Made by a program: the position numbers and the translations under genes. The notes under the pieces are model-generated. The model was not told the DNA's origin. It made no database searches and saw only the letters and a list, made by a program, of their open reading frames with translations. A stretch of DNA of 28,709 nucleotides from a virus: IMG/VR virus record IMGVR_UViG_3300031521_000289, positions 1 through 28,709 of that record, one strand, 5' to 3'. Below, one piece after another: positions 4,761-27,264 of the stretch; position 1 is the first letter of the stretch; each line of letters begins with the position of its first letter.

Positions 4761-5069
4761 TTATATAATTTCAAATTTAGATCTCATTCTATATAATGTT
4801 CTCTCTGAAACCCCAAGGAATTTTGATCTTTGATTATCATTATCAAAAATTATATCTGCAAGTTCTAATTGAATTGAAGGTTCACTAACTAATTTTTTAA
4901 TAATATTGCACTCAGAATCAACTTCTAAAATAGTTTTCTTATCAAATTCTTTTAATTTAAAAGAATCCAATATGTCAAAACCTGAAATTTTATCATTATT
5001 CACTTTTGTTCCAGTTGGAATAAAAAGAGAATTCAAATCTTTGGTTACATAAAGAAATTTATTTTTCAT
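4761..5069 (-). CDS. Protein with C-terminal Fis-type helix-turn-helix
   Basis: 102 aa. The last 25 residues (QRSKFLGVSERTLYRMRSKF) fit the Fis/NtrC-type HTH 'aa..LGvsrrTLyrklkk', indicating DNA binding. The first 75 residues are unrecognised. Candidate phage transcription regulator; targets unknown. Its ATG overlaps the stop of the upstream 52-aa gene (ATGA at 5069-5066), so the two are probably translationally coupled. Confidence 0.7.
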   Translation of the reverse strand: MKNKFLYVTKDLNSLFIPTGTKVNNDKISGFDILDSFKLKEFDKKTILEVDSECNIIKKLVSEPSIQLELADIIFDNDNQRSKFLGVSERTLYRMRSKFEII

Positions 5070-5224
5070 AAATTTTCTATTTTACAGATAGCTTTTTTTG
5101 TGGCTTTAATATATTTATAGTATATTCCACTATTATTATTTCCTGATTTATTGGCCAACATTTTTTCTTTTTCCAATATCGTTCTCAATTTTTTAAGTAA
5201 TTTGCTTTTTTTAAACATTTTCAT
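5066..5224 (-). CDS. 52-aa basic protein coupled to the HTH gene
   Basis: ATG at 5224, TGA at 5066; sequence starts MKMFKKSKLLKKLRTILEKEK and ends KKAICKIENL. Very basic and helical. Three facts support it: it begins 11 nt after a phage-type promoter motif, ends in an ATGA overlap with the HTH gene, and fills the gap exactly. Function unknown; a small nucleic-acid-binding protein is possible. Confidence 0.65.
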   Translation of the reverse strand: MKMFKKSKLLKKLRTILEKEKMLANKSGNNNSGIYYKYIKATKKAICKIENL

Positions 5225-5235
5225 AGTTTTTGGTT

Positions 5236-5266
5236 TTATAACGAAAATAATAAATTAAAAGTGAAA
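5236..5266 (-). promoter_or_regulatory. Phage-type promoter motif (weaker -35 half)
   Basis: TCGTTATAA (5244-5236) is exact. The upstream box is TTTCACT (5266-5260) in place of TTTCTCC, at the standard 15-nt spacing. 11 nt to the ATG at 5224. It lies in the divergent region shared with the plus-strand endolysin gene. Confidence 0.6.
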
Positions 5267-5324
5267 CAAAATTATAAAAAAATATTCATTAATTAAAATT
5301 TTTATTTTATATTTATGATAAAAA

Positions 5325-5954
5325 ATGGAATTAACTGTACAACAATTAATAAGCATAATAGGCTCGAATAAAACTGAGCTGGCTAATAATTTAATTAAAT
5401 CACTAAATGACAATCTTAAAAAATATGAAATTAACACAAAACAAAGAATTTGTCATTTTTTAGCACAGGTTTTACATGAAAGTTCAAATTTTTATTATGT
5501 TAAAGAAAATTTAAACTATTCAGCAAAGGGATTGGTTGCTGTTTTTCCAAAATATTTTCCAAATTTAGAAATGGCATTGCAATATCAATATAAACCTGAA
5601 AAAATTGCAAACAAAATCTATAGTTTAAGAATGGGTAATGGAGATGAAGCTTCTGGAGATGGGTATAGATATTGTGGTCGTGGTTTTATTCAAACTACAG
5701 GATTAAATAATTATAAAGCATTTTCAAAATATGCAGGAATTGATTGTGTTAATAAACCAGAATTGTTAGAAACAATACAATATGCTATAGAATCAGCTTG
5801 CTATTTTTGGAAAATTAACAACTTAAATACTTTATCAGATTCAACAAATAAAAATGAAGATGTTGTTTTATCTATAACCAAAATTGTAAATGGTGGAACC
5901 AATGGATATGATGATAGATTACAAAAATTTAATATATGTTTTAACGTTTTGTAA
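5325..5954 (+). CDS. GH19-family endolysin
   Basis: A 209-aa glycoside hydrolase family 19 (chitinase-like) muramidase, the usual phage endolysin fold. Seen: FLAQVLHESSNF with H51-E52 (general acid Glu), ENLNYSA with E61 (second Glu), then MGNGDEASGDGYRYCGRGFIQTTGLNNY (the conserved G.GDG..YRGRG..QlTG substrate-cleft motif) and ITKIVNGGTNG near the end. No signal peptide, so release would require a holin or other pore, none of which is adjacent. It is the only intact plus-strand gene and runs towards the ligase remnant. It degrades host peptidoglycan at lysis. Confidence 0.92.
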   Translation: MELTVQQLISIIGSNKTELANNLIKSLNDNLKKYEINTKQRICHFLAQVLHESSNFYYVKENLNYSAKGLVAVFPKYFPNLEMALQYQYKPEKIANKIYSLRMGNGDEASGDGYRYCGRGFIQTTGLNNYKAFSKYAGIDCVNKPELLETIQYAIESACYFWKINNLNTLSDSTNKNEDVVLSITKIVNGGTNGYDDRLQKFNICFNVL

Positions 5955-6436: not shown

Positions 6437-7729
6437 TTATATAAATGATAATTTTCCGTCTTTATGTCGGATTTTGTTCACGACTGGAATCACTGCAAAT
6501 TCCTCTATCTCCTCAGCTTTAAAGGCATTGGGGACTACTTTTCGAATAATATTATAACTACCGTTGACATCAGCGTGGATTTTGGTTGGTTTACCGAGGA
6601 TTTTGTACCAGCTTCTACTTTCACGATACCCACCAAATTGGTGGTGTGAGTTATCGTTTTTGTTGAAAGTTGGTATTGGGTCCAGATCCAAGAAAGATGC
6701 TTTGGATGTATAAGATTCTTCATTTGTTAAGGCCAATCTTCCCTTAATTTCCAGTTTATAGGATATTTTATCAAAGAGTTTAGTAAATGGGATTGATTGA
6801 GAATTTTGATTATTTTTCGATCCCATTTCTTTGTTTTGTTTCCAGAAATCGTTTTTGCCAAGGATAATTATATTGATGTCATTTTCCTCCAATTGGTCAA
6901 CGACCAAATTGGCTGCTTTGGTAAAATAATCATCAATTTTATTATTCCTTTTCATTGTGAGTTTCTGAATTTTATTTGATGTATATACTCCTTTTGGTAA
7001 CTGACTTTGGTACTCAGCCATTTTTTTGTTGTAATATTGATTAACGCTCTTAACTGGTCTTCCATTAATGATTTTGGGAGTAAACTCCTTAACATTTGAG
7101 GTTAAAGTCAGTAGATTGTTAACACCTGGGTCTGCACCCATATATTTTTTATTATCTTTTTTTGGTTCCTCTATTTCTTTTTTATATATTGTTTCTATTT
7201 GGTAACACCCAGTTTGCACGGATATTTCAACACAAACAAGTTTGCAATCTGTATGCAGATATGGAATTGATATATTTGTTTTTGATAATTTTATAACTCC
7301 TTTTTTTAATCCTGTTGTTGAAATTGATCCAAGTTCGTAGTTAAGTCCGTTTCTTCCTATTTTTGTGTTTTTATATTTTGGAAGACTTGGTATTCCCGTA
7401 TATTTTTGTGGATGTATTTTCCAGTCTTTTATGGATACGAAAAAACTTTTCCAGTTTTTATCCAATCCTATTAATACCTGATTTGATATTTTTCTTGGTA
7501 ATGCTTTGTAATTTTCATCTTTGATCAGCATCTTTCTTATATCATGATAATTAAGGTATATGGCGTGATCAACCATACCTTTTTCTTTTAATTCAGATGT
7601 ATGTATGAAAACCTGACGGATAATGAAATTTGCCCTGTTATATAATTTTTTTGATTTCCAACATAATTCATCAATTTCTTTATAAAATTCATGATTTGTA
7701 TCTATCCTATGTTTCTCAATCAAATACAT
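6437..7729 (-). CDS. tnpB: IS1341-like TnpB with rearranged RuvC site
   Basis: A 430-aa TnpB/OrfB-family protein, the RNA-guided nuclease family of IS200/IS605 elements. RuvC-I is GADPGVNN (D200). At the usual RuvC-II position the sequence is IIILGKNDFWKQ, with G291 where canonical TnpB has Glu; a Glu pair lies further on in TNEESYTSKASFLD (E337/E338), and RuvC-III is HADVNGSYNI (D387). There is no CxxC zinc finger. This arrangement is typical of the IS891/IS1136/IS1341-like branch, in which the catalytic Glu is thought to have moved. No tnpA is nearby. The stop codon abuts the DNA-ligase fragment. Base composition is less extreme than in the neighbouring genes. Confidence 0.85.
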   Translation of the reverse strand: MYLIEKHRIDTNHEFYKEIDELCWKSKKLYNRANFIIRQVFIHTSELKEKGMVDHAIYLNYHDIRKMLIKDENYKALPRKISNQVLIGLDKNWKSFFVSIKDWKIHPQKYTGIPSLPKYKNTKIGRNGLNYELGSISTTGLKKGVIKLSKTNISIPYLHTDCKLVCVEISVQTGCYQIETIYKKEIEEPKKDNKKYMGADPGVNNLLTLTSNVKEFTPKIINGRPVKSVNQYYNKKMAEYQSQLPKGVYTSNKIQKLTMKRNNKIDDYFTKAANLVVDQLEENDINIIILGKNDFWKQNKEMGSKNNQNSQSIPFTKLFDKISYKLEIKGRLALTNEESYTSKASFLDLDPIPTFNKNDNSHHQFGGYRESRSWYKILGKPTKIHADVNGSYNIIRKVVPNAFKAEEIEEFAVIPVVNKIRHKDGKLSFI

Positions 7730-13666: not shown

Positions 13667-13759
13667 TTATATTAATTCAAATTTTGTTAATGTATCTCTT
13701 CTTACTTCTTTATTAATTGTTAAAAGATAATTTTTGATATTGTTTATTATTTTACCATT
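13667..13759 (-). pseudogene. 3' fragment of the gene interrupted by the IS element
   Basis: Immediately beyond the right end of the IS, a frame without start codon runs NGKIINNIKNYLLTINKEV to TKFELI and stop (30 codons). Joining base 15286 to base 13759 on the minus strand restores one continuous frame with the 5' fragment (…LDYLQQFY + NGKIINN…), 127 aa in all. The product is unrecognised. See the fragment at 15286-15576. Confidence 0.75.
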
Positions 13760-13764
13760 GTGAA

Positions 13765-14961
13765 CTACCCACCCACGCCAAAGGCGATTGGATGGGCTTC
13801 GGGTTTCATAGAGTGTGCTTTGTTGCCAAAGTCTGATTTACTCTCCACCTTTGTAATCGCCAGTTCCTGACGATATATTTTTAATCCTTCTTTTAGAATG
13901 TTCTTTGCAGCATTAAGGTCACGGTCTAATATATGTCCATTTTTGCAAGTCCATTCTCTTATTGAAAGATTTAAGTCTTGATTTATCCAACCACATTCAC
14001 AACAGGTTTTACTTGAAGGATACCAGCGATTGATTTTAATAATTTGTTTATCATTCCAATCTGCTTTATATTCCAACAATCTTACGAAAGTCCCCCAACT
14101 GGCATCTGATATATGTTTTGCAAGTTTATGGTTTTTAACCATTCCTTTCACATTCAAGTCTTCTAATGCGATTATATCATAATTAGACACTAATTGGTGG
14201 GATACTTTATGTAAGTTATCCATTCGTGAGTTGGTTATCTTCTCGTGAATTAAGGCTGTTTTCCGTCTTTGTTTTTCAAACGAATTACTACCTTTTATTT
14301 TACGAGAAAGATGTTTTTGTGCTTTCGCTAACTTTCTTTCATATCGCTTTGTGTATTTGTTATTTTTGAATTTAACTCCATCAGATGTTATTGCAAAGTC
14401 TTTTAATCCTAAGTCAATTCCACATACAGCACCTGTCTTTTCTTTTGGTTGATATTGTTCTTCTGAAAGTATAGATACGAAATATTTGCCTGTTGGTGTT
14501 TTGCTTAAAGTACATTTCCCAATTTCGCCCTTTACTTCACGGTGAACATTAACTTTAATTCCTTCCTTAAACTTTGGTGCGTAAAATCTATCTCCTTCCA
14601 GTTTTGCAAATTGGGGAACAGTAAACGTATTCTTCTTTTTTCTTGACTTAAATCTTGGAAACTTAGCGTTACCACGAAAAAAATTTACATAAGCAGTATC
14701 TAAGCATCTTAAAGCAAACTGCAATGATTGGCTATTAACTTCTTTAAGCCAAACAGTTTCATCTTTTTTCTTTAATTCTGTTAAAGTTGCTGCTTGTGCA
14801 TAGTAATTATCTGACTTTTTATCTGCTTGATACTGTTCTTTACGCTCATTCAGAAAATGATTATAGACAAATCGGATACATCCAAAATGCTTATCCAACA
14901 GCGTTTTCTGCTCTTGGTTTGGCATTAATTCAAATTGGTATGTCCGAAATATCGTTTTCAT
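13765..14961 (-). CDS. tnpB: TnpB RNA-guided endonuclease
   Basis: 398 aa, full length for IS605 TnpB. N-terminal TYQFELMPNQEQKTLLDKHFGCIRFVYNHF is the conserved OrfB start. RuvC motifs are all present: GIDLGLKDF (D183), IIALEDLN (E267) and DRDLNAAKN (D348). The zinc-ribbon region has C-x2-C (around 320-323) and CKNGH (C339, H343), i.e. a Cys/His variant of the usual four-Cys finger. Known function: cuts DNA next to a transposon-specific motif, guided by an omega-RNA from the element's right end. The stop codon lies inside the RE hairpin, so mRNA and omega-RNA overlap. The protein should be active even though TnpA is not. Confidence 0.93.
   Translation of the reverse strand: MKTIFRTYQFELMPNQEQKTLLDKHFGCIRFVYNHFLNERKEQYQADKKSDNYYAQAATLTELKKKDETVWLKEVNSQSLQFALRCLDTAYVNFFRGNAKFPRFKSRKKKNTFTVPQFAKLEGDRFYAPKFKEGIKVNVHREVKGEIGKCTLSKTPTGKYFVSILSEEQYQPKEKTGAVCGIDLGLKDFAITSDGVKFKNNKYTKRYERKLAKAQKHLSRKIKGSNSFEKQRRKTALIHEKITNSRMDNLHKVSHQLVSNYDIIALEDLNVKGMVKNHKLAKHISDASWGTFVRLLEYKADWNDKQIIKINRWYPSSKTCCECGWINQDLNLSIREWTCKNGHILDRDLNAAKNILKEGLKIYRQELAITKVESKSDFGNKAHSMKPEAHPIAFGVGG
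13768..13796 (-). ncRNA. RE hairpin and probable 3' part of the omega-RNA scaffold
   Basis: Reverse strand: GCCCATCC…GGGTGGG outer stem of 8 pairs, a 2-nt bulge, then CGCC-TTT-GGCG. This imperfect hairpin is the kind TnpA recognises at the right end and the kind that ends the omega-RNA. The RNA would run on through GTAGTTCAC, and its guide would start at 13759 with AATGGTAAAATAATAAAC. The 5' end of the RNA is not determinable here. Confidence 0.65.
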
Positions 14962-14988
14962 TCTTACTATTAAATAGTTTTAATAACG

Positions 14989-14996
14989 CAAATATA
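14989..14996 (-). promoter_or_regulatory. Host-type -7 element before tnpB
   Basis: TATATTTG (14996-14989) matches the Bacteroidota TAnnTTTG -7 element, 27 nt before the tnpB ATG. No convincing TTTG -33 element lies 19-20 nt upstream. Unlike the phage genes, tnpB appears to use host-type transcription signals, as expected of an immigrant. Confidence 0.45.
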
Positions 14997-15010
14997 ATGC
15001 TTTTTTGTAA

Positions 15011-15217
15011 ATCCGCTACATTCCTCGTTTATCCATTGCTCAAATAGTTCGTAGGCTTAAACAAGAATCTACTCGTCAAATATGGTTGCTGCATTCATCT
15101 ACACTTCGTAAGCAATATTGGTATCAGAAGCTACTTTGGTCAGATGGTTATTTCGTTTGTTCAATCTGGGAAGCAAGTCCAAATACTATTCGTGAGTATA
15201 TCCTTTCACAAGGTTAA
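15011..15217 (+). pseudogene. tnpA: C-terminal remnant of IS200/IS605 TnpA
   Basis: A plus-strand frame of 68 codons, opened by a stop and not by a start: IRYIPRLSIAQIVRRLKQES, then IWLLHSSTLRKQYWYQK, LLWSDGYFVCSIWEASPNTI, REYILSQG. This is the second half of a Y1 HUH transposase: 'S.s.iv..LK..Sa', 'fWs.GYFv.svG', and the terminal helix carrying the nucleophile Tyr (REYI). The first ~70 residues with the HUH metal-binding motif are absent, so it cannot transpose the element by itself. Divergent from tnpB, as in IS605. Confidence 0.85.
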
Positions 15218-15240
15218 TTCATTATATTTGTGCCTTACAT

Positions 15241-15269
15241 CCAATCCACGCTAAAAGGCGATGAATTGG
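15241..15269. repeat. LE hairpin of the IS element
   Basis: CCAATCCA (15241-15248) pairs with TGAATTGG (15262-15269) with one G-T pair on the minus strand, then a 1-nt bulge and CGC/GCG around a 6-nt loop. Same size and design as the RE hairpin (core 'ATCGCCTTT…GCGTGG' on the minus strand in both), which supports a matched LE/RE pair. Confidence 0.7.
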
Positions 15270-15285
15270 TTTTACGGCACGTTTT

Positions 15286-15576
15286 ATAAAATTGTTGTAA
15301 ATAATCAAGTTTTAACCCTTTTTTAACAAGAGTTAAATCTTTGTTTTTTATTCTATTGTTTTTGTAATCACTTATTGCAGATAAAATAATATCTTTATAT
15401 CCTATATTAAAATCAACAATATTTATTTTTCTTTCTGTAATTCTACCATTAACAATTACTCTTAATTGGTGTACTTTGTTACTTTTTAAATACATAATCT
15501 CAAAATCATCAAAACCAATGAGGTTAAATACATCATTGGTTTTTTCGTATTTTGCTATTTTTATTATATTTTTCAT
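15286..15576 (-). pseudogene. 5' fragment of the gene interrupted by the IS element
   Basis: ATG at 15576, 8 nt after a phage-type promoter motif. 97 native codons run MKNIIKIAKYEKTNDVFNLI to KGLKLDYLQQFY; reading continues 15 codons into the IS (KTCRKTNSSPFSVDWM) and stops at 15235, giving a 113-aa chimera. Beta-rich with a basic helical end (KNNRIKNKDLTLVKKG); not recognised. The missing 30 residues lie at 13667-13759. As the head gene of its unit, the insertion could also reduce expression of the primase-like and methyltransferase genes downstream. Confidence 0.75.
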
Positions 15577-15617: not shown

Positions 15618-16922
15618 TTATTTTTTAGAATCATATTCGAAATTAAGAATTTTAACACTTAAATTGTTAGAAAATTTGCTTCTTACCACAATGCCCTCAA
15701 TTATTTGTCCTGTTTTTTCTTTAATTTCTTTAAAAATTTCATTACATTTTTTTATTAAATCATCATAAGAATATATACCTTCAAATATAGGTTCAGTATA
15801 TTCTAAACCTAATTCTTCTGAAACTTTTTTAAGGTTATGTTCTTGACCATAATGAATTCTTTTAGCACATCCCGATTTCAAATCATCAACTCCAAAAAAA
15901 ATAACTTTAGAATCTCCTTTGGCATCTTGGTTTAAATTCTTTCCACTTCCTTTGCTGCCACCAGAACCTCCTACAAGTTCTCCACGTAAAGCCAATTCTA
16001 CATTATATTTCAAACAATATGTTTCTAATTTATCAAGATAACCATGTTTTTTAGTAGTATCCACAAAAGCATCTCTCACCTCAGTTGTTATTTCTTTTAA
16101 ATTTAAATCAACAACATCTTGATTAGTGTAAAATTTTTGTTTAAAATCATTATACCATCCTTTTTGATTTGTAGCCCTATCAAAATATTGATGTAATATA
16201 TTATTATCTAAGTCAATATAACTAGAAACATAGGTCTGTTCAATTTTCTTTTTTTGATTTCTTGAACATATACCCTTTTCAAATTCATTAATATTAATAG
16301 AATCTTTACGAAAATATTCCGTAATAGATGAACCATCTCTTTTAATAGAACCTGAAATAATTTCATTATCTTCAAAACACCTATCAATATTTGATTTTTT
16401 TAACTGTGCAAGAGGTTCATCTGTTTTATATAAAAAACTTGGAATATCACCATCTGATAATCCTGAACCACCGCTTTCAAAAGAATCTTCTGCCACATAT
16501 TTAATAACTTCTAATTTCACCCGTAAATCAATATCAGAAAAATCATTGGTTTTTAAATATTCTTTTAAAATAGTTAATGGAATAATAATTCCATTTGAAT
16601 ATATTGGTTCAGTACTATTTAACATACTGAAGTTGAACTTTATACTTCTAATTCTCCCCTTTTTACCTAATTTATTTTTAGAAATATCTCCATTTGGTTC
16701 ATGATATTCTCTAAATATCAATGAGTTAGGAATACAAAAATCTGGCATTATATATAAAACATTATCTCCAATTTTATATAATCCTTTGCCTACAACAATA
16801 TCAAATTCACATGAATTCCCATCCGAATCACAAATGTGTGCAACTTGAATATTTAATGCTTCTTCACCATTTTTATAAATGGGAATTAATTTTTCAATTT
16901 TTACAATATCTACAGGTTTCAT
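15618..16922 (-). CDS. RNA ligase of the DRB0094/Rnl5 type
   Basis: 434 aa. Ligase motifs: I KRDG (nucleophile K194), III ALRGELVG (312-318), IV IIEGIVVRS (408-415) and V SVKILNFEY (K424). The first ~120 residues form the OB-like N-terminal domain typical of the Deinococcus DRB0094 family (IVKIEKLIPIYKNGEEALNIQVAHI, VVGKGLYKIGDNVLYIMPDF). Such enzymes seal 3'-OH/5'-phosphate nicks in RNA through an enzyme-AMP intermediate. An insertion around 205-270 and a Gly/Ser loop (VGGSGGSKGSGKN) are present. In phages, RNA ligases undo host tRNA cleavage. Intact; last gene of its unit before the next promoter. Confidence 0.88.
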   Translation of the reverse strand: MKPVDIVKIEKLIPIYKNGEEALNIQVAHICDSDGNSCEFDIVVGKGLYKIGDNVLYIMPDFCIPNSLIFREYHEPNGDISKNKLGKKGRIRSIKFNFSMLNSTEPIYSNGIIIPLTILKEYLKTNDFSDIDLRVKLEVIKYVAEDSFESGGSGLSDGDIPSFLYKTDEPLAQLKKSNIDRCFEDNEIISGSIKRDGSSITEYFRKDSININEFEKGICSRNQKKKIEQTYVSSYIDLDNNILHQYFDRATNQKGWYNDFKQKFYTNQDVVDLNLKEITTEVRDAFVDTTKKHGYLDKLETYCLKYNVELALRGELVGGSGGSKGSGKNLNQDAKGDSKVIFFGVDDLKSGCAKRIHYGQEHNLKKVSEELGLEYTEPIFEGIYSYDDLIKKCNEIFKEIKEKTGQIIEGIVVRSKFSNNLSVKILNFEYDSKK

Positions 16923-21510: not shown

Positions 21511-21687
21511 TTATTTTAAATTATTTTTTAACTCAGCTATCTCATTTCTAATTTCTGAAATATATTTTAATCTTTTGCTTGAAAAACCATGTCTCATAGC
21601 TACTGTTTGTAAATCTTTTATCTCTTCTCCTAGCAAACCAACATATTTTTCGTAAAGCTCAATTATTTTATTTTCATTTTTATACAT
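21511..21687 (-). CDS. 58-aa helical protein
   Basis: ATG at 21687, TAA at 21511: MYKNENKIIELYEKYVGLLGEE, then TVAMRHGFSSKRLKYISEIRNEIAELKNNLK. Fully helical, with a possible short HTH-like turn (MRHGFSSKRL). Overlaps the nucleotidyltransferase gene by 8 nt and ends 5 nt before the DHH gene, filling the gap exactly. Confidence 0.65.
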   Translation of the reverse strand: MYKNENKIIELYEKYVGLLGEEIKDLQTVAMRHGFSSKRLKYISEIRNEIAELKNNLK

Positions 21688-22345
21688 AATGGAATTCTTT
21701 AATGTTATTACTGTCTAACATTTTTTGAAATAATTCGTTGTTACATTTTTGAATATAATAATTTTTAATTTCTCCTTTTTCAAACATATTGTTTATTTTG
21801 TTTCTCAATGTATATTCACTAAATATAAGATCATTTATATTTGGTTTATCATTATAAAGTTCCTTTATATGTTTAAGATTTGGCAATCTATTTTCAATTA
21901 ATTCTTTTGCACAATATAAACTTCTGTTTGCATGAAATAATTTATTTTTTTTATCTAAATGTTTTAAATCTCTTTTTGCAAAACCAATAAATGCTTTAAT
22001 TATTTTATATGTTCTACAAAGTTCTAATTTTAATTCATCTTTTACCAAATCTGTAAACATCACAATATCAACATTTATTGTAGAATCTCCAGAATGAAAA
22101 TTTTTCCAAAATTGAAGTTCTGAGCAATAAAGCCAATCTATATTATTATCAATATCTTTATGTTGAAATTGGTGATAATTTGGAAGAGATGAATATAACT
22201 CAATTTCAGGAGTTGAATATATCGAAAGAATATCTAAATCTGAATTTTCATTATTTGTTCCATATAAATGGGAACCAATTTCAAAATTTCTAAGAACAAT
22301 AGAATCAAGTTGTTCTTTTTCTTGTTTATTTATTATTATATTCAT
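21680..22345 (-). CDS. Nucleotidyltransferase-fold protein
   Basis: 221 aa. FEIGSHLYGTNNENSDLDILSIY at residues 21-43 is the polymerase-beta-type nucleotidyltransferase motif: GS (24-25), then D36-x-D38. A further carboxylate should come from NVDIVMFTDL. C-terminal half is helical (RDLKHLDKKNKLFHANRSLYCAKELI), as in the phage/bacterial 'predicted nucleotidyltransferase' group that includes MJ1435-like proteins. It transfers a nucleotide to an unknown acceptor (RNA end, protein or antibiotic-like molecule). With an RNA ligase and RlmN-like enzyme nearby, RNA-end processing is a reasonable guess only. Confidence 0.8.
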   Translation of the reverse strand: MNIIINKQEKEQLDSIVLRNFEIGSHLYGTNNENSDLDILSIYSTPEIELYSSLPNYHQFQHKDIDNNIDWLYCSELQFWKNFHSGDSTINVDIVMFTDLVKDELKLELCRTYKIIKAFIGFAKRDLKHLDKKNKLFHANRSLYCAKELIENRLPNLKHIKELYNDKPNINDLIFSEYTLRNKINNMFEKGEIKNYYIQKCNNELFQKMLDSNNIKEFHYV

Positions 22346-26203: not shown

Positions 26204-27264
26204 TTATAGAACGAATCTAAATTTATCTATTACTTTACTTTCTTGTATCATTCTGTGGTTACTTTTTAGGGGCGAAGCCTTGTCATCCATAACCGTGCAG
26301 TCCTCAAGCGTTAATTCGGGTGTAAGTATCCCTATTTTTACTTTGTTATTATTTTGTTTTTCTTCCTCTATAAGAAATAATTTATAAAGTCTGATTCCTT
26401 CTTTATAGATGTTGATAGCAGCATTAAGGTCACGATCAATGTTAAGACCGCAATGTTCGCACACATAAATGCGTTCATCTAGGCCCAATTTTTCTTTTTT
26501 ATGACCACAACAGCTACATAGTTTTGAACTAGGAAACCATCTACTTATTTTGATTACATTGCCACCTTTCCATTTTGCTTTATACTGAAGCATTTCAATA
26601 AATCTACCGAGACCGAGGTCTTGGATTGATTTTGCGAGGTGGTGGTTTTTCATCATTCCTTTAATGTTAAGGTCTTCTAAAATGATAACTTGGTTTTCGT
26701 TTGTCCAACCAATATGGAGGCAAAATACTTTCCTGATGTTGCTTTGGATATTGTGACTGATTTTATATTTTGCTTGTTTTTTAGCAAATAATTTTTGTCT
26801 GAATCTGAACACCTATATTTTAAATTTTTTATTTCTTTCGTCAGATTTAATTTGTTGTTTTTATCTGAAAGGCATTTTTTGCTGACAGCATCAACAGGGA
26901 ATCTTGATCTTTGCCTATCAAATTTCTTTTTAAATTTTGGAAATCCAACTTTTTCTCCTTTGCGCTTATTGGAACAAGAATCAAAGAAGTTCTTGTATGC
27001 TTGGATGAGGTCAATGATAGCTTGTTTCATCACCTTTGTATTCTGTTCAAGCATAAAACTTTTTTCTGGATTTTTTCTTATGTAATCTGTAAAATATTTA
27101 CCCAGATATTTAAGGTTAATAACATTCGTTTTTCCTTCTTTATAAGAATTAATGCAATGTGAAAGACAAGTATTATATACCAAACGATAACACCCGTGAT
27201 TCTTCGCCAATAGAATCCTCTGCCTCTCATTTGGGTAAATCCTTATCTTTTTTGCATTTAACAT
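26204..27264 (-). pseudogene. tnpB: TnpB pseudogene lacking RuvC-I
   Basis: Two frames of one OrfB/TnpB. The N-terminal part (27264 to about 26705) runs MLNAKKIRIYPNERQRILLAKN to SVTISKATSGKYFASILV; the C-terminal part (about 26703 to 26204) resumes NENQVIILEDLNIKGMM (RuvC-II Glu), a full CxxC…CxxC zinc finger (CSCCGHKKE…CEHCG) and DRDLNAAINI (RuvC-III). About 90 residues expected between them, including GIDxGIK (RuvC-I) and the bridge helix, are gone, and the join shifts frame. Nuclease-dead. The start has AGGA 9 nt upstream, a Shine-Dalgarno-like site unlike the phage genes. Confidence 0.85.

What the first reader, a model, noticed from the sequence alone, without database searches (positions are those of the whole stretch)
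13667..15576. IS605-type insertion with a reconstructable empty site and a TnpB guide that would target that site
Seen: joining base 15286 to 13759 restores one 127-aa frame, with no duplication, and TTTAT directly precedes the joint. The right end carries the expected hairpin and TTCAC end. Established: TnpB uses an omega-RNA whose guide is the flank just past the right end, and cuts targets next to the pentamer the element inserts behind. Inference: this TnpB would cut TTTAT + AATGGTAAAATAATAAAC, that is, the uninterrupted gene in related co-infecting phages, so the element can spread by homing repair even though TnpA has lost its HUH half. A phage-borne TnpB persisting without its transposase is a useful test case.
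Basis: partly seen in the sequence, partly recalled or inferred. Interest (0 to 1): 0.7.

Follow-up and report, generated by a model that had tools for sequence, protein, structure and literature searches.

The report
Phage TnpB element missing its transposase
A small selfish DNA element has cut a phage gene in two; it has lost the enzyme that moves it but keeps an RNA-guided DNA cutter aimed at the uncut gene, a good but otherwise ordinary example of a known kind of element.

Summary
A 1,526-bp IS200/IS605-family element lies at 13760-15285. Joining the flanks restores a 127-codon gene. Fourteen viral contigs carry that gene uninterrupted; the 13 complete ones are exactly 127 codons with no gap at the junction. 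TTTAT lies directly left of the element in 23 of 25 mapped family copies, and the right end is TTCAC in 32 of 33. TnpB is intact, with all three RuvC acids. A three-hairpin omega-RNA scaffold ending at the right end is supported by covariation. TnpA lost its HUH half through a deletion of about 280 nt between short repeats.

The predicted target is right, but no known intact allele matches it: all differ at 10-12 of 20 guide positions, and 7 of 13 lack TTTAT. No other allele carries an insertion. Homing is possible only between very close kin and is unobserved. The TnpA loss looks recent, so this copy says little about persistence. TnpA-less copies recur in this family (at least five label changes on the tree), and four also lack a detectable left end; those are better test cases. 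TnpB homing is already published as an idea, and gene drive is shown for plasmids. New member of a known kind.

The parts
13760..15285 (-). whole IS200/IS605-family element, 1,526 bp, reading LE to RE on the minus strand
   Evidence: Empty-site join restores a 127-aa gene; gapless intact homologs; ends shared by family copies with different flanks
15286..15290 (-). TTTAT target motif, the predicted TAM, directly left of the element
   Evidence: Same motif at the same place in 23 of 25 mapped copies; background about 0.8% per position
15214..15285 (-). left end with imperfect hairpin
   Evidence: DNA fold -12.1 kcal/mol, z -3.3; conserved in family copies
15011..15217 (+). tnpA remnant: C-terminal half of Y1 transposase, HUH half deleted
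   Evidence: PF01797 positions 55-121 at 15005-15211, one stop inside; 96% identical to residues 69-136 of intact L011 TnpA
15017..15022 (+). deletion junction at short repeat TACATT
   Evidence: Alignment to L011: about 280 nt between an upstream CCGCTACATT and an internal CGTTACATT are missing
14989..14996 (-). TATATTTG, Bacteroidota-type -7 promoter motif (TAnnTTTG) for tnpB
   Evidence: Present 35 nt before the ATG; such a motif also in 11 of 20 other copies listed; motif consensus from own knowledge
13765..14961 (-). tnpB, 398 aa, RuvC D183, E267, D348
   Evidence: Pfam OrfB_IS605, Cas12f1-like_TNB, HTH_OrfB_IS605; ISDra2 TnpB 8h1j at 1e-74; motif positions; dN/dS 0.06-0.14 against relatives
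13760..13873 (-). omega-RNA scaffold with three conserved hairpins (about 13857-13873, 13818-13831, 13768-13797)
   Evidence: 33-row alignment: 95.5% of cells paired, 0 of 500 shuffles as high, slid controls 34-46%
13760..13764 (-). right-end terminus TTCAC
   Evidence: 32 of 33 aligned copies (TTCAT in L019), different flanks beyond
13740..13759 (-). predicted guide AATGGTAAAATAATAAACAA, in the right flank
   Evidence: Position from established TnpB biology (PMC8612924, PMC10278001); not shown experimentally here
15286..15576 (-). 5' part (codons 1-97) of the interrupted 127-aa gene
   Evidence: Homologous to L005 codons 1-97
13667..13759 (-). 3' part (last 30 codons and stop) of the interrupted gene, the most conserved stretch
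   Evidence: 86.7% nucleotide identity to L005 over 75 nt

Best explanation
This is a non-autonomous derivative of an IS200/IS605-family (IS605 layout) element that circulates in Bacteroidota and their phages. It inserted 3' of TTTAT in a phage gene of unknown function, cutting off the last 30 of 127 codons. Later a deletion between short repeats removed the 5' half of tnpA, including the HUH motif, but spared the left end, the tnpB promoter, tnpB and the right end. The tnpB transcript most likely runs through the right end into the flank, giving an omega-RNA whose scaffold is the last ~115 nt of the element and whose guide is the adjacent flank. TnpB would then cut TTTAT+AATGGTAAAATAATAA, the empty allele of this same gene in near-identical phages; the occupied allele is safe because TTCAC, not TTTAT, stands before the guide copy. 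Effect: loss or repair-copying (homing) of element-free sister genomes in mixed infections. The element can no longer excise or transpose by itself, though its ends could be moved by a related TnpA in trans. Shown: anatomy, ends, TAM, gene, TnpA deletion, omega-RNA covariation. Inferred: transcription, cutting, homing. Rough step confidences: identity and anatomy 0.97, TnpB cuts the empty site 0.7, homing happens in nature 0.25.
For: Empty site and homologs; family ends and TAM; TnpB domains, ISDra2 similarity and RuvC residues; purifying selection; omega-RNA covariation; TnpA deletion and remnant; the TnpB cutting rule and retention model from PMC8612924, homing proposal and own-mRNA processing from PMC10278001, gene drive in plasmids from PMC11870625.
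Against: No near-identical empty allele was found anywhere searched; all known intact alleles are predicted non-substrates. No second phage with the element at this site. TnpB activity, TAM use and RNA are not measured. The pairwise dN/dS values cover time before tnpA was lost, so they do not prove selection after the loss in this copy.
Confidence: 0.72

Rival explanations
1. A recently crippled copy that is simply decaying: TnpA was lost a short while ago and TnpB is intact only because not enough time has passed; no current function.
For: TnpA remnant still 96% identical to intact TnpA, with dN/dS about 0.07 against L011; a second TnpB in the window is already a pseudogene; some family copies have broken TnpB (L032, L023, L034).
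Against: Several TnpA-less copies in other phages keep an intact TnpB with pairwise dN/dS 0.06-0.16 and a well paired omega-RNA (93.6% of cells paired versus 96.5% in TnpA+ copies).
Confidence: 0.4
2. Non-autonomous element still mobilised in trans: both ends are intact, and a related TnpA supplied by the host or a co-infecting phage moves it. TnpB then serves the usual retention role after excision.
For: Left end, TTTAT and right end all intact; intact-TnpA copies with matching ends exist in phages and Bacteroidota genomes such as Sphingobacterium.
Against: No copy with the same TnpA deletion at another site was found; the deletion at TACATT is seen only in the window.
Confidence: 0.35
3. Interference rather than homing: TnpB destroys the genomes of near-kin phages that lack the insertion, like intron-encoded endonucleases that exclude co-infecting phages, and the element spreads by survivorship without repair copying.
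For: Same target logic; the plasmid work found displacement of target plasmids and could not separate killing from recombination (PMC11870625).
Against: No data here separate it from homing.
Confidence: 0.2
4. Domesticated, nuclease-dead TnpB acting as an RNA-guided repressor (TldR-like).
For: Phage-encoded TldR proteins are known (PMC13418256).
Against: All three RuvC acids are present and the predicted guide is still the transposon flank.
Confidence: 0.02

Closest known systems
ISDra2 (Deinococcus radiodurans), IS200/IS605 family
   Same: Y1 TnpA plus TnpB, hairpin ends, insertion 3' of a pentamer without duplication, right-end-derived guide RNA, TnpB homologous over residues 8-360 (8h1j, 1e-74)
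   Different: Pentamer TTTAT instead of TTGAT; here tnpA lies on the opposite strand and its HUH half is deleted; cutting not tested
Isolated-tnpB elements of the IS200/IS605 family (IS1341-type)
   Same: TnpB without a working TnpA; isolated tnpB elements are listed as a normal configuration (PMC8612924)
   Different: Here the TnpA remnant and both ends remain, so the loss is recent and the parent layout can be read
Intact copies of the same family, e.g. L011, L010, L027
   Same: Same ends, TTTAT, 88-92% identical TnpB, same omega-RNA
   Different: Full-length 136-aa TnpA with HVH motif present
TnpB gene drive of IS200/605 in plasmids (Mears et al. 2025, PMC11870625)
   Same: Same proposed logic: cut element-free copies of the same replicon
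   Different: Plasmids, with experiments; here a phage and only sequence evidence
Phage homing endonucleases in introns and inteins (own knowledge)
   Same: Cutter carried in the site it cuts, spreading to empty alleles
   Different: RNA-guided, re-aimed at each new site; no splicing, so the host gene stays broken

Membership tests
IS200/IS605 insertion sequence | Y1 HUH transposase TnpA | tested here: not met
   Only positions 55-121 of PF01797, HUH deleted; family relatives have it intact. The element is a defective member, not an autonomous one
IS200/IS605 insertion sequence | Subterminal hairpins at both ends | tested here: met
   DNA folds z -3.6 and -3.3
IS200/IS605 insertion sequence | Insertion 3' of a fixed tetra- or pentanucleotide, no target duplication | tested here: met
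   TTTAT in 23 of 25 copies; gapless empty alleles
IS200/IS605 insertion sequence | Accessory TnpB with RuvC DED and zinc finger | tested here: met
   Pfam and PDB matches; D183, E267, D348; the second zinc pair reads CKNGH rather than CxxC
TnpB/omega-RNA (OMEGA) nuclease | Structured RNA scaffold ending at the right end, guide in the flank | tested here: met
   Covarying hairpins up to TTCAC; expression not testable here
TnpB/omega-RNA (OMEGA) nuclease | RNA-guided, TAM-dependent DNA cutting | not testable with these tools
   Needs biochemistry
Homing element | Empty cognate allele with intact target exists in related genomes | tested here: not met
   13 readable intact alleles all mismatch 10-12 of 20 guide bases; no related exact match in IMG/VR; close kin may be unsampled or left out of the collection
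Homing element | Element at the same site in diverged hosts, tree incongruent with flanks | tested here: not met
   0 of 14 other alleles occupied; same-site copies elsewhere in the family have 99-100% identical flanks

The most novel reading that the evidence does not exclude
In phages of Bacteroidota this TnpB family is kept by selection after repeated loss of the transposase (at least five label changes on the tree, four copies without a detectable left end), working as a transposase-independent RNA-guided homing or exclusion nuclease among near-identical phages.
Probability: 0.25. Interest if true: 0.65.

Novelty: new member of a known kind. Interest (0 to 1): 0.35.

Why it matters
Many TnpB genes lack a transposase, and why they persist is open. 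The window gives one clean case with a known empty allele, and the wider family gives a natural series: intact elements, copies with nested tnpA deletions, and copies with TnpB and right end only, all in phages. Comparing cutting and inheritance bias across that series would test whether TnpB is kept for homing or exclusion, or merely lingers.

Tried and rejected
Exact search for TTTAT+guide in IMG/VR: one hit (L038), no other similarity to the window, taken as chance. 127-aa protein in named phages: no match. Rfam on the window: no match, so no sign of an IStron-type group I intron that would splice the insertion out. RNA-ligase neighbour in IMG/VR: none confirmed. Same-site pairs as a test of homing (L008/L009, L011/L026, L012/L033, L017/L018): flanks 99.9-100% identical, the same phage sampled twice, uninformative. 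TldR-like repressor rejected because the RuvC acids are intact. Structure of the 127-aa protein: mean pLDDT 56, too poor to search.

Full report
What was checked. The window is a 28,709-base virus record, 25% G+C. The claimed join 13759|15286 does restore a 127-aa frame. Seven IMG/VR contigs encode it (L005, L039-L044), each exactly 127 codons and aligning without a gap at the junction. A search for the conserved C-terminal peptide added seven more contigs (L068, L069, L071-L075; L070 is the L005 contig again); L071 is cut short by its contig end but reads through the site. So the target gene is real and the empty site is right. A joint one base over gives the same protein; the exact base is fixed by the element ends below.

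The element. On the minus strand it reads TTTAT | AAAACGTGCCGTAAAACC... to ...GTGGGTGGGTAGTTCAC | AATGG, 13760-15285. Thirty-one viral loci and 16 loci from bacterial and archaeal assemblies carry relatives of its TnpB, the closest named ones in Algoriphagus (89%) and Sphingobacterium (87%), so the family is most at home in Bacteroidota and, by inference, their phages. Across copies in different places the right end is TAGTTCAC almost without exception, followed by unrelated flanks, and TTTAT stands directly left of the left end in 23 of 25 mapped copies (exceptions L020, L045), against a background of about 0.8% per position. Both ends fold as DNA hairpins.

TnpA. Aligned to the intact copy in L011, the window has lost about 280 nt between CCGCTACATT upstream of tnpA and CGTTACATT inside it, a deletion between short repeats. 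What is left matches the last 68 residues of TnpA; the HVH motif is gone. No other Y1 transposase was found in the window. The remnant is 96% identical to L011 TnpA and has dN/dS about 0.07 against it: most of its divergence accumulated while it was still under selection, so the loss is recent.

TnpB and its RNA. TnpB is intact, matches OrfB_IS605, Cas12f1-like_TNB and HTH_OrfB_IS605 and ISDra2 TnpB in the PDB, with D183, E267 and D348 in place. Pairwise dN/dS against 19 relatives is 0.06-0.14; these values include time before tnpA was lost. A 33-row alignment of the last 186 nt shows three hairpins. For the structure I named, 95.5% of cells pair, 13 of 25 pairs show changes on both sides, no shuffle of 500 reaches any measure, and slid partners pair in only 34-46%. 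The structure was partly derived from the same alignment, but the compensatory changes in helices 1, 2 and 4 are plain to see in the sequences. Since these hairpins lie within the tnpB reading frame, this is RNA-level constraint on top of coding.

The target. By the established rule (PMC8612924, PMC10278001), the guide is the flank from 13759 downwards, and the substrate is TTTAT+AATGGTAAAATAATAAAC. In the 13 intact alleles whose site could be read, 10-12 of 20 guide positions differ and 6-9 of the first 12; six carry TTTAC and one TCTAT instead of TTTAT. None is a likely substrate. The only exact 20-mer match in IMG/VR has no other similarity to the window. The C-terminal peptide search could also have caught interrupted alleles; none was found, so 0 of 14 other alleles is occupied. 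Thus homing is possible only within very close kin, which are not in the collections (or are left out as too near). At the occupied site the guide copy is preceded by TTCAC, so the element does not target itself.

The family series. Counting distinct viral loci with complete TnpB, ten lack an intact TnpA (window, L006, L007, L008, L012, L013, L014, L015, L019, L030) and ten have it (L010, L011, L016, L017, L020, L021, L022, L024, L025, L027). My query was TnpB, so this ratio is biased and says nothing of TnpA-only copies. On a TnpB tree the TnpA-less label needs seven changes, five of them forced by well supported branches. L006, L008 and L030 have deletions ending near the same AATAT-type repeats, so some may share an origin (by eye). 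L007, L012, L015 and L019 have no recognisable left end. Omega-RNA pairing is similar in the TnpA-less (93.6%) and TnpA-bearing (96.5%) sets.

Known or new. TnpB as a homing-like nuclease is published as an idea (PMC10278001), and a drive by IS200/605 TnpB is shown in plasmids, where the authors could not separate killing from repair copying (PMC11870625). Isolated tnpB elements are a listed configuration (PMC8612924). My searches turned up no held paper that shows TnpB homing in phages, but the library lacks most subscription journals.

Noticed in passing
window 26204-27264 (-): A second, different TnpB (47% and 33% identical in two pieces) is a pseudogene: an internal deletion removed the RuvC-I region and shifted the frame.
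   Followed up: partly
window 6437-7729 (-): A third TnpB-like protein, 430 aa, has ILGKN where the RuvC-II ED motif usually stands and ESYTSKASFLD downstream, resembling the TnpB group with a rearranged active site.
   Followed up: no
L013 and L034, around 5000-5640: Left flanks 99.9% identical, but L034 TnpB has a large internal deletion and its right end is followed by different DNA, then by a second solo right end with yet another flank; looks like right-end-mediated rearrangement or solo omega-RNA units.
   Followed up: partly
L010 8300-8449 and 10560-10721: Two further right-end-like units (GGGGTAGTTCAC) with their own flanks in the same contig; may be other elements or solo guide units.
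   Followed up: no
L032 and L023: The reverse state: TnpA intact but TnpB frameshifted (L032) or split by an insertion after residue 26 (L023).
   Followed up: no
L053 and L056: Two Sphingobacterium species carry a TnpB piece with the same right flank, 99.3% identical over 3.4 kb; shared descent or transfer.
   Followed up: no
window 15618-16922 and 21680-22345 (-): RNA ligase (58-59% identical to one in the 462-kb uncultured phage LR756500) and an RlaP-like nucleotidyltransferase, suggesting an RNA-repair set in a fragment of a large phage.
   Followed up: partly
window 5325-5954 (+): Glycoside hydrolase 19 (chitinase-like, probable endolysin), the only clear gene on the plus strand, similar to Flavobacterium phage immuto.
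   Followed up: no
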